Assembly (NCBI GenBank): GCA_017467605.1
Contig: JAFUSQ010000030.1
Location: 1 to 54,168, forward strand
Source of the DNA: a bacterium
GTDB taxonomy: Bacteria; Cyanobacteriota; Vampirovibrionia; Gastranaerophilales; Gastranaerophilaceae
Direction: 5' to 3'
Length of the DNA: 54,168 nucleotides
Shown: positions 3,742 through 53,411 of the stretch, piece after piece
Layout of the letters: each line of letters starts with the position of its first letter
Position numbering within the stretch: position 1 is the stretch's first letter
Made by a program: the position numbers and the translations under genes
The notes under the pieces: model-generated
Told to the model about the DNA's origin: nothing
The model's database searches: none
Seen by the model: the letters and a program-made list of their open reading frames with translations, nothing else

Positions 3742-4641
3742 TTATCGCAAAGATTGAATATCAAAATCAATCTGCAATTTTAAATCTTCAATACTATCAA
3801 ACTTTATTTCAGGTCTAATCATCTTATTAAAACATACTTTTAATTCTTGTCCATAAATATCTTCGTTAAAATTCAATATATAAACTTCTAATATAGTTAT
3901 ACCGTCATTAGAAACTGTCGGAGAAACACCAAAATTTGCCAATCCGCGCTTTATAACACCGTTGGGAAATTCAACATCAACATCATAAACACCATGCGGA
4001 GGTTCAACAATATCCAAAGGATAAATGATATTTGCCGTAGGATATCCGATAGTTCTGCCAAGTTCACGCCCCTTTATAACAGTACCTTTGATCGAAAACT
4101 TACGGCCCAGCATATTTTCTGCCATATCAACAACCCCGGTTTTAATAAACTGACGAATAGCAGTAGAACTAATCATATCACCAAAAATTGCCTGAGGCGG
4201 GGTAGCAAAATATACATATCCGAATTTATCTTGATTATCAGAAAGAAACTTCACATTACCGGATTTGTCAACTCCAAACTTATGATTAAAACCCGTTGAA
4301 ATAGCTTTTGGTTTAAAATACTTCATTAAAATATCAGATAGATATTGCATAGGAGACATATTGCAAACAGATGCAAAGTCTAATTCAAAAACATAATCCA
4401 CACCTAATTGCTCTAAATACTTATATTTATCCTCAAGAGTCAAAATATATTTCGGAGACACACCTTTAAAAAAACAATACGGGTGTTCTTTAAAAGTTAT
4501 TACAGCAGATTGAACTCCAATTTCATGGGCAAAATCAACAGCACAGGAGATTACCGCTTGATGCCCCAAATGGACTCCATCGAAAAATCCCAAGGCAATA
4601 GATAGATTTGGTATCTCTCTTAATTCTCTGATAATCTCCAT
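3742..4641 (-). CDS. ribF: bifunctional riboflavin kinase / FMN adenylyltransferase
   Basis: RibF makes FMN and then FAD from riboflavin and ATP. The N-terminal nucleotidyltransferase has GFFDGVHLGH (residues 18-27, the HxGH motif); the C-terminal flavokinase has GRTIGYPTANI, the conserved GxPTAN block. The length of 299 aa is close to the family norm of about 310. The ATG has no Shine-Dalgarno site; instead TATAAT ends six bases before it, which predicts a leaderless transcript. No FMN riboswitch could fit in such a leader. Confidence 0.95.
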   Translation of the reverse strand: MEIIRELREIPNLSIALGFFDGVHLGHQAVISCAVDFAHEIGVQSAVITFKEHPYCFFKGVSPKYILTLEDKYKYLEQLGVDYVFELDFASVCNMSPMQYLSDILMKYFKPKAISTGFNHKFGVDKSGNVKFLSDNQDKFGYVYFATPPQAIFGDMISSTAIRQFIKTGVVDMAENMLGRKFSIKGTVIKGRELGRTIGYPTANIIYPLDIVEPPHGVYDVDVEFPNGVIKRGLANFGVSPTVSNDGITILEVYILNFNEDIYGQELKVCFNKMIRPEIKFDSIEDLKLQIDFDIQSLR

Positions 4642-4647
4642 AATATA

Positions 4648-4675
4648 ATTATACTCAAAACTTTCTGCTTGTAAA
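4648..4675 (-). promoter_or_regulatory. leaderless promoter of ribF
   Basis: On the minus strand TTTACA (4675-4670) and TATAAT (4653-4648) are 16 bp apart. Only six bases (TATATT) separate the -10 box from the ribF ATG, so transcription should start at or next to the A of the start codon. Confidence 0.65.
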
Positions 4676-11469: not shown

Positions 11470-12118
11470 CTATTGCCCTTTTATAAGACGTTTTATTAAT
11501 TGCCATTAAATCTTTTACGGAATTATCAATAAATTCATCATATTTATAAGCAATCTCAAAAGCCTTCTTCATAATTTTCTTTACAGTCGGCACAAGAAAA
11601 TCAGCATTTTCATCTGCGTACAAATCATACAATGCACCAAGAACATAATACAATTTTTCAATAGTTTTCATTTCTTTTACTGCTGATTTATGAGAGTCAT
11701 CTACAGATGAATCAGTGTTTTGGGAAAAATTCAATTCAAAATCGTACTTTTTCTCGATAATTTCGTTATATCTTATTTTAATAAATTCAAAAATCTCCAA
11801 TTCATCAGAATTGAGCCTTAAAAACTTGCTTTTCAAAGATTTATTCGGGTAATTTTTAACCTTTGAAATATATCTTTCATGAGTTGCACAAAAAGCATCA
11901 AAAGACGATTTATCAGGGAAAATCAGACTTTTTTTTGTTGCATATTCACCTTCTAAAAAGAGTAGAACAAAAGTAAAAAGTTTTTTATCATTGATGTGTT
12001 TTACATAATCTTTGCAATTTCTATACTCTCGCAAATCAAAGACTTTATTTAAATAAGAGTCTTTCTGCTCTGAAATAGAATTATAACTTTCTTGCTCCAG
12101 TCGTAATGCTAAACCCAT
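11453..12118 (-). CDS. 221-aa protein of unknown function, partner of the Fic/Doc gene
   Basis: No known domain is recognised. It is a mainly helical, charged, soluble protein without signal or membrane segments, with clusters such as LNKVFDLREYRNCKDYVKHI and EKLYYVLGALYDLYADE. Its 3' end overlaps the Fic/Doc gene, so the two are translationally coupled. It has its own promoter and an AGGAT site before the ATG. By position it could be an antitoxin or a target-recognition subunit, although it is much larger than Phd antitoxins. Confidence 0.6.
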   Translation of the reverse strand: MGLALRLEQESYNSISEQKDSYLNKVFDLREYRNCKDYVKHINDKKLFTFVLLFLEGEYATKKSLIFPDKSSFDAFCATHERYISKVKNYPNKSLKSKFLRLNSDELEIFEFIKIRYNEIIEKKYDFELNFSQNTDSSVDDSHKSAVKEMKTIEKLYYVLGALYDLYADENADFLVPTVKKIMKKAFEIAYKYDEFIDNSVKDLMAINKTSYKRAIDVLSQ

Positions 12119-12135
12119 AATTTTATCCTAAACTT

Positions 12136-12192: not shown

Positions 12193-12426
12193 CTAAATTT
12201 CCAAGTTTTTAAATATCAATAACTCATAAGGTTCAAAACCTAAAGCCTTGGCAATTTTTTCAACAGTATCAAGTGTCGGAGAAGAAGTTTGAGCTTCAAT
12301 TTGAGTGTATGTAGATTTTCCGATTCCGGCTAATTCTGCTAATTTTTCTTGGGATAATCTTCTTTTTGTACGTTCAAAACGTAATCTTATGGCAAATTTT
12401 TGTGCAGTAGTCGAAATCGTACTCAT
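12193..12426 (-). CDS. XRE-family regulator of cassette A, 77 aa
   Basis: This small Cro/C1-type HTH protein reads FERTKRRLSQEKLAELAGIG then KSTYTQIEAQTSSPTLDTV, a nearly complete one-domain regulator with the C-terminal FEPYELLIF helix. It would bind DNA as a dimer. The start is placed at the ATG at 12426, six bases after the -10 box TATAAC, so the message is leaderless; an ATG 27 bases upstream would lie in the promoter. It is divergent from pilin A, and the 44-bp palindrome between them is its likely operator. Whether it represses or activates is not known. Confidence 0.85.
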   Translation of the reverse strand: MSTISTTAQKFAIRLRFERTKRRLSQEKLAELAGIGKSTYTQIEAQTSSPTLDTVEKIAKALGFEPYELLIFKNLEI

Positions 12427-12432
12427 ATTGCA

Positions 12433-12475
12433 GTTATAGTAGCATATTGACAATAGTACAACAATACGTTATACT
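12433..12475. promoter_or_regulatory. interlocked divergent promoters of cassette A
   Basis: The plus promoter for the pilin is TTGACA (12447-12452), 17 bp, TATACT (12470-12475). The minus promoter for the regulator is TTGTAC (12461-12456), 17 bp, TATAAC (12438-12433). Each -35 box falls in the spacer of the other promoter, so RNA polymerase cannot occupy both at once. Confidence 0.7.
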
Positions 12476-21951: not shown

Positions 21952-22227
21952 TTAAGCATCTATAAAAGTAAATTTATCTCCCAATTCTTTTTCCAAAATT
22001 TTTACGAATTCCGAAAATTTTAGCCCTAATGCTTCTGAAATTTTCCAAGCCATAGCAAGCGAACACCCAACTTCACCCCGTTCTATTTTACTCAAATTGG
22101 CTCTATTTATATCATATTCCAGTGCAAATTTATTTAACGAAAGAAAACCGCGCTCTATACGCAATTTTCTTACAACTCCGCCCATTTTAACTCTGAACAT
22201 ATTAAAATTGCTATTTTCTTCTTGCAT
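21952..22227 (-). CDS. XRE-family regulator of decayed cassette B, 91 aa
   Basis: It has a Cro/C1 HTH: LRIERGFLSLNKFALEYDIN then RANLSKIERGEVGCSLAMAW, with a C-terminal GLKFSEFVKILEKEL helix. TATTAT lies exactly six bases before the ATG and there is no Shine-Dalgarno site, so it is probably leaderless. An inverted repeat, TAAAT-GTTAGT-ATTTA (22238-22253), overlaps its promoter. It converges with umuC with eight bases between stops. The divergent partner, once a pilin, survives only as a 3' stub at 22292-22375. Confidence 0.85.
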   Translation of the reverse strand: MQEENSNFNMFRVKMGGVVRKLRIERGFLSLNKFALEYDINRANLSKIERGEVGCSLAMAWKISEALGLKFSEFVKILEKELGDKFTFIDA

Positions 22228-22291
22228 TTTTTAATAATAAATGTTAGTATTTAGAAAAGTGCTTCTTAAAACATCCTTCGTATTTAACTAA

Positions 22292-25129: not shown

Positions 25130-26272
25130 TTAACCCCAAATATCTCTAAATTTCTTATGAATTTTCACGTTGTGCACCCTTACATAATCAATATTTTCAG
25201 AAATTAAAACACTGTTTAATGCAAGTGAATAGATATCTTTTTCTTCATTTGAGGCATTTTGCATATCCAAAAGACTTTTTCTTGAGAGCCCAATCAATAC
25301 AGGAGTACCTATAGTTTTTAATTCCTTCCAACGTCTTAGAATTTCAAAATTATTCTCTTTTGTTTTACCAAATCCAATTCCGGGATCAATTATAATATTT
25401 TCCCTTTGAATACCTTTTTCAATAGCAAAATTTACTTTTTTATACAAATTTTTATAAATTTCGTCCATTAAGTTCTCATAATGCGGAGAATTTTGCATAT
25501 TTTCAGGAGTTCCAAGCGAATGTTGAATTACAATTTTAATTTTCGGATTTTGAGCAATAACATCAACCATTTTTTCATCATAATCAAAGCCCGAAACGTC
25601 ATTTATGATTGCAACAACTCCGGTTTCGATACACTTTTGAGCAACATAAGCACTTCTTGTATCTATACTTACGGGAATTTTTATATCGTTTTCTTTTATA
25701 TAACATAGAACAGGCAGAAGTTTATCCAATTGCTTTTGAGATTGAACTGCAGAAGAATACGGTTTGGCAGATTCAGCACCAATATCAATAATATCCGCCC
25801 CGTCAGTTATTAATTTATTTAATTGTTTTATTGAATCTTCAAAATCATAAAATTCGCCGCCGTCAGAAAACGAATTTTGTGTAATATTTAAAATTCCCAT
25901 TATTTTTGTTTTTTGAAAATCATTACATGATAGTTTATTTTTCAAAAGTTTTCCAAGCTCTTTCAACCCAAAAGGCTGCATTTCAAGTTTTTGGGAAATT
26001 TTTATTAACTGTGATATACTTCCTCCCAAAATACAGTCGGATTTTTCAACTTGCCCTGTTATAACTTGTTTATTTGTTGCACAATCCGCCCCGACTGATA
26101 GCGCAGCCTGCTTTAGAATATTTGCCTGAGCAACAGATAAATTATACAATTTAATATTTTTATATCTGAATTTATCAACAGCTTTAGCAGAATAAGAATC
26201 GTCAAAGCCAATTATATCTAATTCTTTTTTTAAATCATCAGAATAAATTTCTTTCAGTAAAAAATCGTGCAT
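25130..26272 (-). CDS. folP: dihydropteroate synthase with N-terminal extension
   Basis: FolP condenses p-aminobenzoate with dihydropterin pyrophosphate in folate synthesis. The TIM-barrel motifs are present: MGILNITQNSFSDGG, DIGAESAKPYSS, SIDTRSAYVA, INDVSGFD and IIDPGIGFGKT. At 380 aa it is about 100 residues longer than E. coli FolP; the extra N-terminal part (residues 1 to about 120) has no recognised domain. Two usually conserved places differ: TPDSFSDGG reads TQNSFSDGG, and DIGGESTRP reads DIGAESAKP. Both lie in the pterin and pABA loops that also contact sulfonamides. The ATG is leaderless. Confidence 0.9.
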   Translation of the reverse strand: MHDFLLKEIYSDDLKKELDIIGFDDSYSAKAVDKFRYKNIKLYNLSVAQANILKQAALSVGADCATNKQVITGQVEKSDCILGGSISQLIKISQKLEMQPFGLKELGKLLKNKLSCNDFQKTKIMGILNITQNSFSDGGEFYDFEDSIKQLNKLITDGADIIDIGAESAKPYSSAVQSQKQLDKLLPVLCYIKENDIKIPVSIDTRSAYVAQKCIETGVVAIINDVSGFDYDEKMVDVIAQNPKIKIVIQHSLGTPENMQNSPHYENLMDEIYKNLYKKVNFAIEKGIQRENIIIDPGIGFGKTKENNFEILRRWKELKTIGTPVLIGLSRKSLLDMQNASNEEKDIYSLALNSVLISENIDYVRVHNVKIHKKFRDIWG

Positions 26273-26278
26273 AAACAA

Positions 26279-26307
26279 ATACTAGCACGATTGTTTTTAT
26301 TTCTCAA
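26279..26307 (-). promoter_or_regulatory. leaderless promoter of folP
   Basis: On the minus strand TTGAGA (26307-26302), 17 bp, TAGTAT (26284-26279), then six bases (TTGTTT) to the ATG. No Shine-Dalgarno site is present. Confidence 0.65.
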
Positions 26308-30277: not shown

Positions 30278-30607
30278 TTACAAAGCCAGCTCTTTATATG
30301 ACTTTAAAATTTTATAATAAAAAATCAATTCATCATCATTAGACTTTTCTAAAATAGATGATATAGATTTCAATAAATCATCTCTCGTTTTTATATGTTC
30401 TACATCAAACAAATCTCTAATTTCAACATTTAAATATGATGCAATTTTGCGCAATTTATCTTCTCTTGGCAAATAAGCACCGTTTTCAATTTTACTTAGA
30501 TTTGTCGGCTCAATTTCCAAAAATTCCGCAAGTTCAAATTGTTTAATATTTCTTGCCTCTCTAAGCTCTTTTATTCGCCTTCCGACTTGTTTGCTTAACG
30601 AAATCAT
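30278..30607 (-). CDS. XRE-family regulator of cassette D, 109 aa
   Basis: The N-terminal Cro/C1 HTH reads IKELREARNIKQFELAEFLE then IEPTNLSKIENGAYLPREDK, followed by a ~40-residue helical tail (LLKSISSILEKSNDDELIFY) that could mediate dimerisation. The ATG at 30607 lies exactly six bases after the -10 box TATACT, so it should be leaderless; a longer frame from 30658 has no ribosome site. It is divergent from pilin D. Confidence 0.88.
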   Translation of the reverse strand: MISLSKQVGRRIKELREARNIKQFELAEFLEIEPTNLSKIENGAYLPREDKLRKIASYLNVEIRDLFDVEHIKTRDDLLKSISSILEKSNDDELIFYYKILKSYKELAL

Positions 30608-30675
30608 AGCAATAGTATAGCCTATATGAATAGACATAAAAAGATTAAATATATTCAATTTTATGTAATATATGA

Positions 30676-31470: not shown

Positions 31471-31502
31471 GTATTGACAATGTCAATACATTATATTATA
31501 AT
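31471..31502 (+). promoter_or_regulatory. leaderless promoter and operator of the candidate toxin-antitoxin pair
   Basis: TTGACA (31474-31479), 17 bp, TATAAT (31497-31502), then six bases to the ATG. A perfect 9-bp inverted repeat with one central base (GTATTGACA-A-TGTCAATAC, 31471-31489) covers the -35 box, as expected of an autoregulated toxin-antitoxin operon. Confidence 0.75.
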
Positions 31503-31508
31503 ACAATT

Positions 31509-31799
31509 ATGGAGCACAAATATCAAATTTTCAAAATTAAGGAAAAAAAATTCATTGTAAAAATGGATTTAAACCCGTTAACAAATGAATTTGAGTATCA
31601 TATGTATTTAAGACATTTAATAACTCCTCAACAAGCAATAGCTGCATATTTTTCTAAAACATATGAAACTTTCAACCCGGAACGAAACAGATATGAGTTG
31701 TATAGCAAAAGTCTTAATATAACTGTCTACTACACATATTTAAAAGAAAAAGATATTCTGTTAATAACAGCATTTTACCAAGGAGGCCAATATGAATAA
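31509..31799 (+). CDS. candidate toxin of a type II-like toxin-antitoxin pair, 96 aa
   Basis: No toxin family is clearly recognised; it lacks the BrnT and RelE signatures I know. The conserved-looking C-terminal half reads PERNRYELYSKSLNITVYYTY and ILLITAFYQGG. The assignment rests on context: small size, an upstream operator-promoter, an eight-base overlap with a CopG/BrnA-like antitoxin gene, and toxin-first order. The message should be leaderless. Confidence 0.55.
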   Translation: MEHKYQIFKIKEKKFIVKMDLNPLTNEFEYHMYLRHLITPQQAIAAYFSKTYETFNPERNRYELYSKSLNITVYYTYLKEKDILLITAFYQGGQYE

Positions 31800-47689: not shown

Positions 47690-47718
47690 TTGACAATATG
47701 TCTGCTATAGAGTACACT
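47690..47718 (+). promoter_or_regulatory. leaderless promoter of the HigBA-type operon
   Basis: TTGACA (47690-47695), 17 bp, TACACT (47713-47718), then ATTAAT and the ATG at 47725, exactly six bases from the -10 box. Confidence 0.65.
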
Positions 47719-47724
47719 ATTAAT

Positions 47725-48048
47725 ATGGAACAGAGAATTGTTAAAATTGCGCAATTATCAAATGATAAAAGTCCTTTTATTGATTGGCTTGAATCATTAG
47801 ATAAAGTTACAAAATCTCGTATTCAATCAAGATTAACCAGATTACTGGAAAACAATTTTGGCGACCATAAGAGAATTGATAATGAAATATCTGAACTTAG
47901 GTTGAAATTTGGTTCAGGTTATAGAATTTATTATACAGAAATTGATAACATAATTGTTCTGTTGATAAATGGCGGAAATAAATCAACTCAAAGCAAAGAT
48001 ATTCAAAAAGCAAAAGAAATACTTCAAGAATGGAGAAATATACAATGA
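47725..48048 (+). CDS. HigB/RelE-type toxin (Gp49-like)
   Basis: The 107-aa protein has the pattern of phage-derived Gp49-like toxins: PFIDWLESLDKVTKSRIQSR, SELRLKFGSGYRIYY and VLLINGGNKSTQSKDIQKA. The family members are ribosome-dependent mRNA endonucleases. The start is the leaderless ATG at 47725; the longer frame from 47698 lies in the promoter. The toxin gene comes first and overlaps the antitoxin by four bases (ATGA). Confidence 0.9.
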   Translation: MEQRIVKIAQLSNDKSPFIDWLESLDKVTKSRIQSRLTRLLENNFGDHKRIDNEISELRLKFGSGYRIYYTEIDNIIVLLINGGNKSTQSKDIQKAKEILQEWRNIQ

Positions 48049-51954: not shown

Positions 51955-51983
51955 TTGCACCAATTTAACAAATTGTTTAGAAT
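51955..51983 (+). promoter_or_regulatory. leaderless promoter of oppF
   Basis: TTGCAC (51955-51960), 17 bp, TAGAAT (51978-51983), then six bases to the ATG at 51990. A short inverted repeat, CAATTT-AAC-AAATTG (51961-51975), fills the spacer. Confidence 0.6.
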
Positions 51984-51989
51984 CGTATT

Positions 51990-52958
51990 ATGACAGAAAA
52001 TTTTGCAGAAATTAAAAATTTAAATGTTACTTACCAAACTAAGAAAAATGTATTTGGGGAGCTTCAAAATATTTATGCGGTAAATAACTTGTCGCTGGAA
52101 ATAAAAAAGGGAGAGATTTTGGCAATTGCCGGAGAATCCGGCTGCGGGAAATCTACGCTTGCAAAAGCCATAATGAAGCTGATTGATGCAAAATCCGGCG
52201 AAATTCTTATAAATGGAGAAAATGTTTTAACATTAAAAAGCCGAACAGATTTAAAAAATTTTTATCAAAAAGTTCAGATAATTTTTCAAAATCCTTATTC
52301 AAGTTTAAATCCCAAAATGAAGATTGGGAAAATCCTTGCTGAACCCCTTGAAATAAATACAAAACTTTCCAAAGAAGAAATAAATAAAATTGTTGAAGAA
52401 AAAATATTGAAAGTCGGATTAGACAAAAGCTGTTTAAATAATTATCCTCATGAGTTTTCCGGCGGGCAGCGGCAAAGAATAGCAATTGCGCGTTCACTTA
52501 TTTTAAATCCGGAATTTATTATCGCTGACGAACCTGTAAGTGCTCTGGACGTTAGTATTCAGGCTCAAATTATTAATCTTTTGAAAGAATTAAAAGAAGA
52601 TTTTAATCTTACATTTTTATTTATTTCTCATGATTTGAGTGTAATAAAATATTTGGCAGACAGAATTGCCGTTATGTATTTAGGTGAAATAGTCGAAATA
52701 GGAGAAAAAGAAGAAATTTTCAATACTCCAAAACACCCTTATACAAAAGCTCTGCTGAGTTCTGTTCCCGAATTAATTTCAACAAATAAAGAGAAGATTA
52801 AGCTCAAAGGCGAACTTCCTTCTCCTGAAAATTTGCCGAAAGGCTGCAAATTTCACACAAGATGTCCGTATGTAAAGGAAAAATGTAAAACAGAATGTCC
52901 GGATAATATAAACTTTTCAAAAACTCACAGATGTAAATGTTTTTTGTACTATAATTAA
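51990..52958 (+). CDS. oligopeptide/dipeptide ABC transporter ATPase (OppF/DppF-like)
   Basis: It is a single ATPase domain: Walker A GESGCGKSTLAKA, Q-loop IFQNPYSSLNPKM, signature FSGGQRQRIAIARSL, Walker B FIIADEPVSALD and switch His in FISHDLSV. The C-terminal extension with GCKFHTRCPYVKEKC is typical of peptide transporters and binds the partner or an iron-sulfur cluster in some members. No permease or binding protein gene is adjacent, so partners must lie elsewhere. The start is leaderless. Confidence 0.88.
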   Translation: MTENFAEIKNLNVTYQTKKNVFGELQNIYAVNNLSLEIKKGEILAIAGESGCGKSTLAKAIMKLIDAKSGEILINGENVLTLKSRTDLKNFYQKVQIIFQNPYSSLNPKMKIGKILAEPLEINTKLSKEEINKIVEEKILKVGLDKSCLNNYPHEFSGGQRQRIAIARSLILNPEFIIADEPVSALDVSIQAQIINLLKELKEDFNLTFLFISHDLSVIKYLADRIAVMYLGEIVEIGEKEEIFNTPKHPYTKALLSSVPELISTNKEKIKLKGELPSPENLPKGCKFHTRCPYVKEKCKTECPDNINFSKTHRCKCFLYYN

Positions 52959-52961
52959 GTT

Positions 52962-53411
52962 ATGGATAAAAAAGTTATAACAACAAACAGAAAAGCTTTT
53001 CACGACTACCTTATTTTTGATAAATTTGTAGCCGGAATAGTTTTGACCGGTACAGAGATAAAATCCATAAGAAAAAATGCAATAAATTTAAAAGACAGTT
53101 TTTGCAGAATAGAAGATAATGAGATATTTTTGTATAACTGCCACATTTCTTTGTATGAACAAGGAAATCGTTATAACCACAAAGAAGAAAGAACACGAAA
53201 ACTGCTTTTGACTAAAAAAGAAATTCTTAAAATGCAGTCTAAAATAAAAAAAGACGGATACACAATAGTTCCGCTTGAAGTTTTTATTACAAAAGGTTTT
53301 GCAAAGCTGGAAATCGCACTTGCAAAAGGTAAAAAATTATATGATAAGCGTGAAGCTTTGGCCAAAAAAGACCAGCAAAGAGATATAGATAGAGGCAAAC
53401 AACGTTATTAG
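52962..53411 (+). CDS. smpB: SsrA-binding protein SmpB
   Basis: SmpB delivers tmRNA to stalled ribosomes. The 149-aa protein has the usual KAFHDYLIFDKFVAGIVLTG and GTEIKSIRKNAINLKDSF, GYTIVPLEVFITKGFAKLEI, and the basic tail YDKREALAKKDQQRDIDR. TATAAT (52950-52955) lies exactly six bases before the ATG, which suggests that it also has a leaderless transcript, although the -35 region is weak. No tmRNA gene was found here. Confidence 0.96.
   Translation: MDKKVITTNRKAFHDYLIFDKFVAGIVLTGTEIKSIRKNAINLKDSFCRIEDNEIFLYNCHISLYEQGNRYNHKEERTRKLLLTKKEILKMQSKIKKDGYTIVPLEVFITKGFAKLEIALAKGKKLYDKREALAKKDQQRDIDRGKQRY

What the first reader, a model, noticed from the sequence alone, without database searches (positions are those of the whole stretch)
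4639..4675. Widespread leaderless transcription: -10 box exactly six bases before the ATG in at least eight genes
ribF, folP, oppF, smpB, three XRE regulators (12426, 22227, 30607), the candidate toxin (31509) and higB (47725) all have a good -10 hexamer followed by six bases and the start codon, and none has a Shine-Dalgarno site, whereas other genes here have strong ones. Regulator E has five bases. This constant spacing is unlikely by chance and puts the transcription start at the A of ATG. Regulators, toxins and some housekeeping genes seem to share this mode, while pilins use AGGAG sites.
Basis: seen in the sequence. Interest (0 to 1): 0.65.

Follow-up and report, generated by a model that had tools for sequence, protein, structure and literature searches.

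The report
Leaderless promoters in a gut melainabacterium
About one gene in ten in this uncultured gut relative of cyanobacteria appears to start its messenger RNA exactly at the start codon, with no leader or ribosome-binding site; the mode itself is known from other bacteria, but I found no report of it in this lineage.

Summary
The window comes from a Candidatus Gastranaerophilales (Melainabacteria) genome. All nine named genes have a TANNNT-like -10 box exactly six bases before ATG and no Shine-Dalgarno (SD) site. In 843 kb of the genome, 76 of 642 ATG-start genes have TANNNT at spacing six, against 13 at five and 17 at seven (p about 1e-27). Signals not used for selection agree: TTG at -35, TG at -15/-14, T at -1 in 80%, SD nearly absent (1 of 76, against 321 of 565), and almost no GTG or TTG starts. 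Among 80 smpB orthologs, 78 keep -10, six variable bases, ATG. ribF keeps it in 23 of 30 genomes and folP in 21 of 30. XRE regulators are enriched (24 of 67 against 77 of 719); pilin-like genes show none (0 of 23). The best explanation is leaderless transcription from ordinary sigma-70-type promoters whose start point is the A of ATG. The kind is known (Actinobacteria, Deinococcus). New here are the lineage, the deep conservation at smpB, and a contrast within the phylum: strong six-base enrichment in several families without photosystem II genes, weak in photosynthetic ones. No mapped 5' ends exist to prove it.

The parts
4639..4653 (-). ribF: -10 TATAAT (4648-4653), six bases, ATG (4639-4641)
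   Evidence: conserved in 23 of 30 family orthologs
26270..26307 (-). folP: -35 TTGAGA (26302-26307), extended -10 TGC-TAGTAT (-10 at 26279-26284), six bases, ATG (26270-26272)
   Evidence: conserved in 21 of 30 orthologs; Pterin_bind hit in the set
51955..51992 (+). oppF: -35 TTGCAC (51955-51960), -10 TAGAAT (51978-51983), ATG 51990
52950..52964 (+). smpB: -10 TATAAT (52950-52955), six bases, ATG 52962; only 3 bases after the oppF stop codon
   Evidence: 78 of 80 orthologs keep the arrangement
12424..12461 (-). XRE regulator: -35 TTGTAC (12456-12461), -10 TATAAC (12433-12438), ATG 12426
22225..22239 (-). XRE regulator: -10 TATTAT (22234-22239), ATG 22227
30605..30619 (-). XRE regulator: -10 TATACT (30614-30619), ATG 30607
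31474..31511 (+). candidate toxin gene: perfect consensus promoter TTGACA (31474-31479), 17 bp, TATAAT (31497-31502), six bases, ATG 31509
   Evidence: no Pfam family found
47690..47727 (+). higB-like (Gp49 family, below Pfam cut-off): TTGACA (47690-47695), 17 bp, TACACT (47713-47718), six bases, ATG 47725
12116..12130 (-). further candidate: unknown protein, -10 TAGGAT (12125-12130), six bases, ATG 12118

Best explanation
A subset of genes, at least about 9% of ATG-start genes, is transcribed from sigma-70/sigma-A-type promoters placed so that the start point is the A of the start codon. The -10 hexamer occupies -12 to -7, six bases follow, and RNA polymerase starts at A (+1) after a T at -1. 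The mRNA begins 5'-AUG, with no 5' UTR and no SD, and is presumably translated by leaderless initiation (70S or IF2-assisted binding to a 5'-terminal AUG). The mode lies mainly at the first gene of a transcription unit and is preferred by XRE/Cro-CI-type regulators. Promoter position, spacing, initiator context, SD exclusion and conservation are shown. The transcript end and the ribosome mechanism are inferred.
For: Spacing peak 76 against 11-25 at neighbouring spacings, p 9e-28; none of 42 GTG and 1 of 94 TTG starts. SD in 1 of 76 against 321 of 565 (p 6e-24); only 6 of 76 lie within 30 bp of a same-strand upstream gene, against 160 of 602 overall; unselected peaks at -35 (TTG), -15/-14 (TG) and -1 (T). 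T at -1 80% against 43-44%; TTG at -35 20% against 2%, gone when the spacing is shifted; SD-led internal starts no commoner than elsewhere. smpB orthologs: -10 and TG in 78 of 80, T at -1 in 80 of 80, spacer -6 to -2 variable. ribF 23 of 30, folP 21 of 30. All 97 family genomes carry more TATAAT-N6-ATG than the reversed control. Five of the nine window sites have TTG exactly at -35.
Against: No 5'-end map, ribosome profile or proteome is available. The gene starts come from a simple gene finder of my own. The folP start lies inside an inverted repeat in about a third of orthologs, which would fit a longer transcript for that gene. Some genes could also be transcribed from upstream promoters.
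Confidence: 0.93

Rival explanations
1. The ATG is not the real start: the promoter is ordinary, the ATG happens to sit at the transcription start, and translation begins at a downstream start codon with its own ribosome-binding site.
For: Individual starts cannot be proven without proteomics; a promoter six bases before an annotated start would arise wherever starts are annotated too far upstream.
Against: SD-led in-frame starts in codons 6-40 are no commoner in this class (9%) than in SD genes (6%) or the rest (13%). smpB, ribF and folP homology begins at the ATG and the ATG is kept. The exact phase with the A of ATG would be unexplained.
Confidence: 0.04
2. AT-rich base composition gives TATAAT-like hexamers before ATG by chance.
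For: The genome is 32% GC and TANNNT is common; the raw count over all ATGs of the window is flat.
Against: The peak is confined to spacing six at true gene starts, with valleys at 5, 7 and 8. It exceeds all 300 shuffles (76 against mean 25, maximum 42), is conserved across genomes with a drifting spacer, and comes with -35 and -1 signals.
Confidence: 0.01
3. The hexamer is a translation signal in RNA (an AU-rich enhancer bound by ribosomal protein S1) rather than a -10 box.
For: AU-rich leaders replace SD in some bacteria, for example Bacteroidetes; many genes here have neither SD nor -10 box.
Against: A fixed 17-18 bp distance to a TTG -35 element, the TG extended -10 and the T at -1 are promoter features; an AU-rich enhancer would not need them.
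Confidence: 0.02

Closest known systems
TA-led (leaderless) genes of bacteria, Zheng et al. 2011 (PMC3160421)
   Same: TANNNT signal about 12 bp before the start, read as a -10 box that makes the gene leaderless; higher share among transcription (COG K) genes
   Different: That survey reported more than 20% in Actinobacteria and Deinococcus-Thermus and placed Cyanobacteria among clades with many 'atypical' genes. Here about 9%, in a non-photosynthetic cyanobacterial lineage.
Leaderless transcriptome of Mycobacterium tuberculosis (PMC3898074)
   Same: TANNNT -10 box at the start codon, SD absent, toxin-antitoxin genes prominent
   Different: Mapped by experiment there: 26% of genes with a primary start site, no -35 motif. 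Here a TTG -35 element and TG extended -10 are visible, the share is smaller, and GTG is not used.
-10 motif adjacent to ORFs in Deinococcus-Thermus (PMC12340547)
   Same: -10 box a few bases before the ORF drives leaderless mRNA
   Different: Different phylum; described there as weakly dependent on sequence other than the -10 motif.
Leaderless repressor genes such as lambda cI and Tn1721 tetR (from general knowledge; PMC4965119 and PMC3017554 contain these terms)
   Same: Regulator genes expressed from a promoter whose start point is the AUG
   Different: Single genes there, a genome-wide class here.

Membership tests
Leaderless (TA-led) bacterial genes | TANNNT -10 box at a fixed distance that puts the transcription start on the start codon | tested here: met
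   Sharp peak at spacing six, 76 of 642, p 9e-28
Leaderless (TA-led) bacterial genes | No Shine-Dalgarno site | tested here: met
   1 of 76 against 321 of 565
Leaderless (TA-led) bacterial genes | Gene is first in its transcription unit | tested here: met
   6 of 76 within 30 bp of a same-strand upstream gene, against 160 of 602 overall; smpB in the window is an exception, 3 bp after oppF
Leaderless (TA-led) bacterial genes | AUG as start codon | tested here: met
   0 of 42 GTG and 1 of 94 TTG starts have the box at six
Leaderless (TA-led) bacterial genes | Mapped 5' end at the start codon | not testable with these tools
   No transcriptome at hand
Sigma-70/sigma-A promoters | -35 element at 17 +/- 1 bp and/or extended -10 | tested here: met
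   TTG peaks at -35 and -34 (15 and 9 of 75 against 0-3 elsewhere); TG at -15/-14 24% against 4-5%; TRTGN-TATAAT in smpB

The most novel reading that the evidence does not exclude
Leaderless expression is a shared trait of the non-photosynthetic branches of Cyanobacteriota, largely missing in photosynthetic cyanobacteria. In the gut lineage it forms a conserved set (smpB, ribF, folP, XRE regulators) that may be translated selectively when normal initiation is impaired.
Probability: 0.2. Interest if true: 0.65.

Novelty: new member of a known kind. Interest (0 to 1): 0.42.

Why it matters
Gene finders that expect SD sites will misplace starts in these uncultured gut bacteria. The -10-N6-ATG rule can fix start codons and promoters from sequence alone. 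The contrast between genomes without and with photosystem II makes a test possible of whether leaderless initiation was lost or gained around the origin of photosynthetic cyanobacteria. The conserved leaderless smpB, the gene of the ribosome-rescue factor, is a natural test gene.

Tried and rejected
Gene-anchored profiles in other families of the phylum were under-powered (20-80 kb each); whole-genome spacing counts were used instead. A search for the standard 16S 3' end (GGATCACCTCCTTT) found nothing in the assembly, most likely because rRNA is missing from this metagenome-assembled genome; the SD peak shows that SD is used. A crude scan for terminators just before the leaderless promoters found none in any class and is uninformative. 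The Pfam comparison of 75 leaderless with 75 SD proteins gave only a trend for HTH_3 (14 against 7); a larger HMM count settled it.

Full report
What the window is. The SmpB search returned 80 relatives; many records are labelled Candidatus Gastranaerophilales or Melainabacteria, the rest mostly unnamed bacteria. The window is contig C2 of a 2.19 Mb, 79-contig assembly, 32% GC in the sampled part.

The observation. All nine named sites were read directly and hold: a -10-like hexamer, exactly six bases, then ATG, and no SD core in range. One hexamer, TATAAC at 12426, is one base off TANNNT. A tenth candidate starts at 12118. The 'regulator E with five bases' could not be matched to a clear site. 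Five of the nine have TTG exactly at -35, with full TTGACA at 31509 and 47725.

Chance. In 843 kb of the genome, 778 genes were called with a hexamer coding model that knows nothing of promoters. TANNNT occurs before 642 ATG starts at spacings 4, 5, 6, 7, 8 in 25, 13, 76, 17, 11 cases. Shuffled upstream regions give 25 +/- 5 at six (maximum 42 of 300). Internal in-frame and out-of-frame ATGs give 1.7-2.0% and show only codon periodicity. The excess is about 60 genes, 9% of ATG-start genes; it is probably a lower bound, since miscalled starts and non-consensus boxes are lost. GTG starts (0 of 42) and TTG starts (1 of 94) do not take part.

Independent signals. Selecting only on TANNNT at six and no SD, other features appear unasked. 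TTG peaks at -35 and -34 (15 and 9 of 75; 0 to 3 at other positions). TG stands at -15/-14 in 24% (4-5% in other genes). T stands at -1 in 80% (43-44% in others), as expected of a start point with pyrimidine at -1 and A at +1. SD is present in 1 of 76 against 321 of 565 (p 6e-24). Few of these genes lie close behind a same-strand gene (6 of 76 against 160 of 602).

Conservation. Among 80 smpB orthologs 78 keep TANNNT-N6-ATG. The -10 positions T, A and T and the TG at -15/-14 are each kept in 78 of 80, and T at -1 in 80 of 80, while -6 to -2 drift. The motif TRTGN-TATAAT is a textbook extended -10 (general knowledge). ribF keeps the arrangement in 23 of 30 and folP in 21 of 30 family genomes, the relatives lying at about 40-76% protein identity.

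Reach in the phylum. TATAAT-N6-ATG exceeds its reversed control in all 97 family genomes, usually two- to fivefold. Whole-genome ratios of N6 to the mean of N3 and N9, which share its reading frame, are 2.2 in five family genomes (p 3e-42), 1.5 in f2, 2.9 in f5, 5.3 in f9 and 6.6 in f13, but 1.2 in a group of eleven genomes, ten of them with photosystem II genes. f12 and f3 (no photosystem II genes) give 2.7 and 2.0 on small counts; f4, which has photosystem II genes, gives 1.7 (p 0.03), so the contrast is a trend and not a rule. The family labels carry no names. The genomes for this table were chosen after seeing the N6 counts, so the size of the contrast may be somewhat inflated.

Who uses it. 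XRE-type regulators 24 of 67 against 77 of 719 other genes (odds ratio 4.7, p 3e-7); pilin-like genes 0 of 23, of which 11 have SD. In M. tuberculosis leaderless mRNAs predominate among toxin-antitoxin pairs (PMC3898074); here that rests on two genes.

Mechanism and rivals. The geometry puts the start point on the A of ATG. The simplest reading is leaderless mRNA from a sigma-70-type promoter. The rivals, mis-annotated starts, base composition, or an AU-rich translation enhancer, each fail a test above. What remains unproven is the 5' end itself and how the ribosome engages it.

Known or new. [quoted passage not shown] 2018, as cited in PMC9581028). The library holds no paper with both 'leaderless' and 'Melainabacteria' or 'Gastranaerophilales', so the lineage appears unreported there; subscription papers and preprints were not searched. 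I file it as a new member of a known kind.

Noticed in passing
window 26255-26295 (folP start, minus strand); L188-L207: A perfect inverted repeat (AATCGTGC ... GCACGATT) flanks the -10 box and start codon of folP. Eleven of 30 family orthologs have arms of 8-14 bp with compensatory changes (CGTGC, CATGC, TATGC, TTCGTGC). Only 1 of 75 leaderless genes in this genome has one. It may be an operator or an RNA hairpin.
   Followed up: partly
G000 sample (window, L001-L020, L101-L120): 244 of 642 ATG-start genes have neither a 4-base SD core nor a -10 box at six; how they initiate is unclear.
   Followed up: no
G000 sample; for example window 2853 and 22478: TATAAT-like hexamers are also commoner directly before ATG (spacings 0 and 1: 38 and 45 of 642). 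In the examples seen they are the AT-rich spacer behind an SD site, not promoters.
   Followed up: partly
window 52950-52964: The smpB -10 box overlaps the 3' end of oppF, with only 3 bp between the genes, so smpB appears to have its own promoter inside a tight gene pair.
   Followed up: no
L161 and L168 (ribF), L213 and L217 (folP), upstream of the start: By eye, terminator-like hairpins with T-runs end just before the leaderless -10 box, which would argue against a longer transcript for these genes. Not quantified.
   Followed up: no
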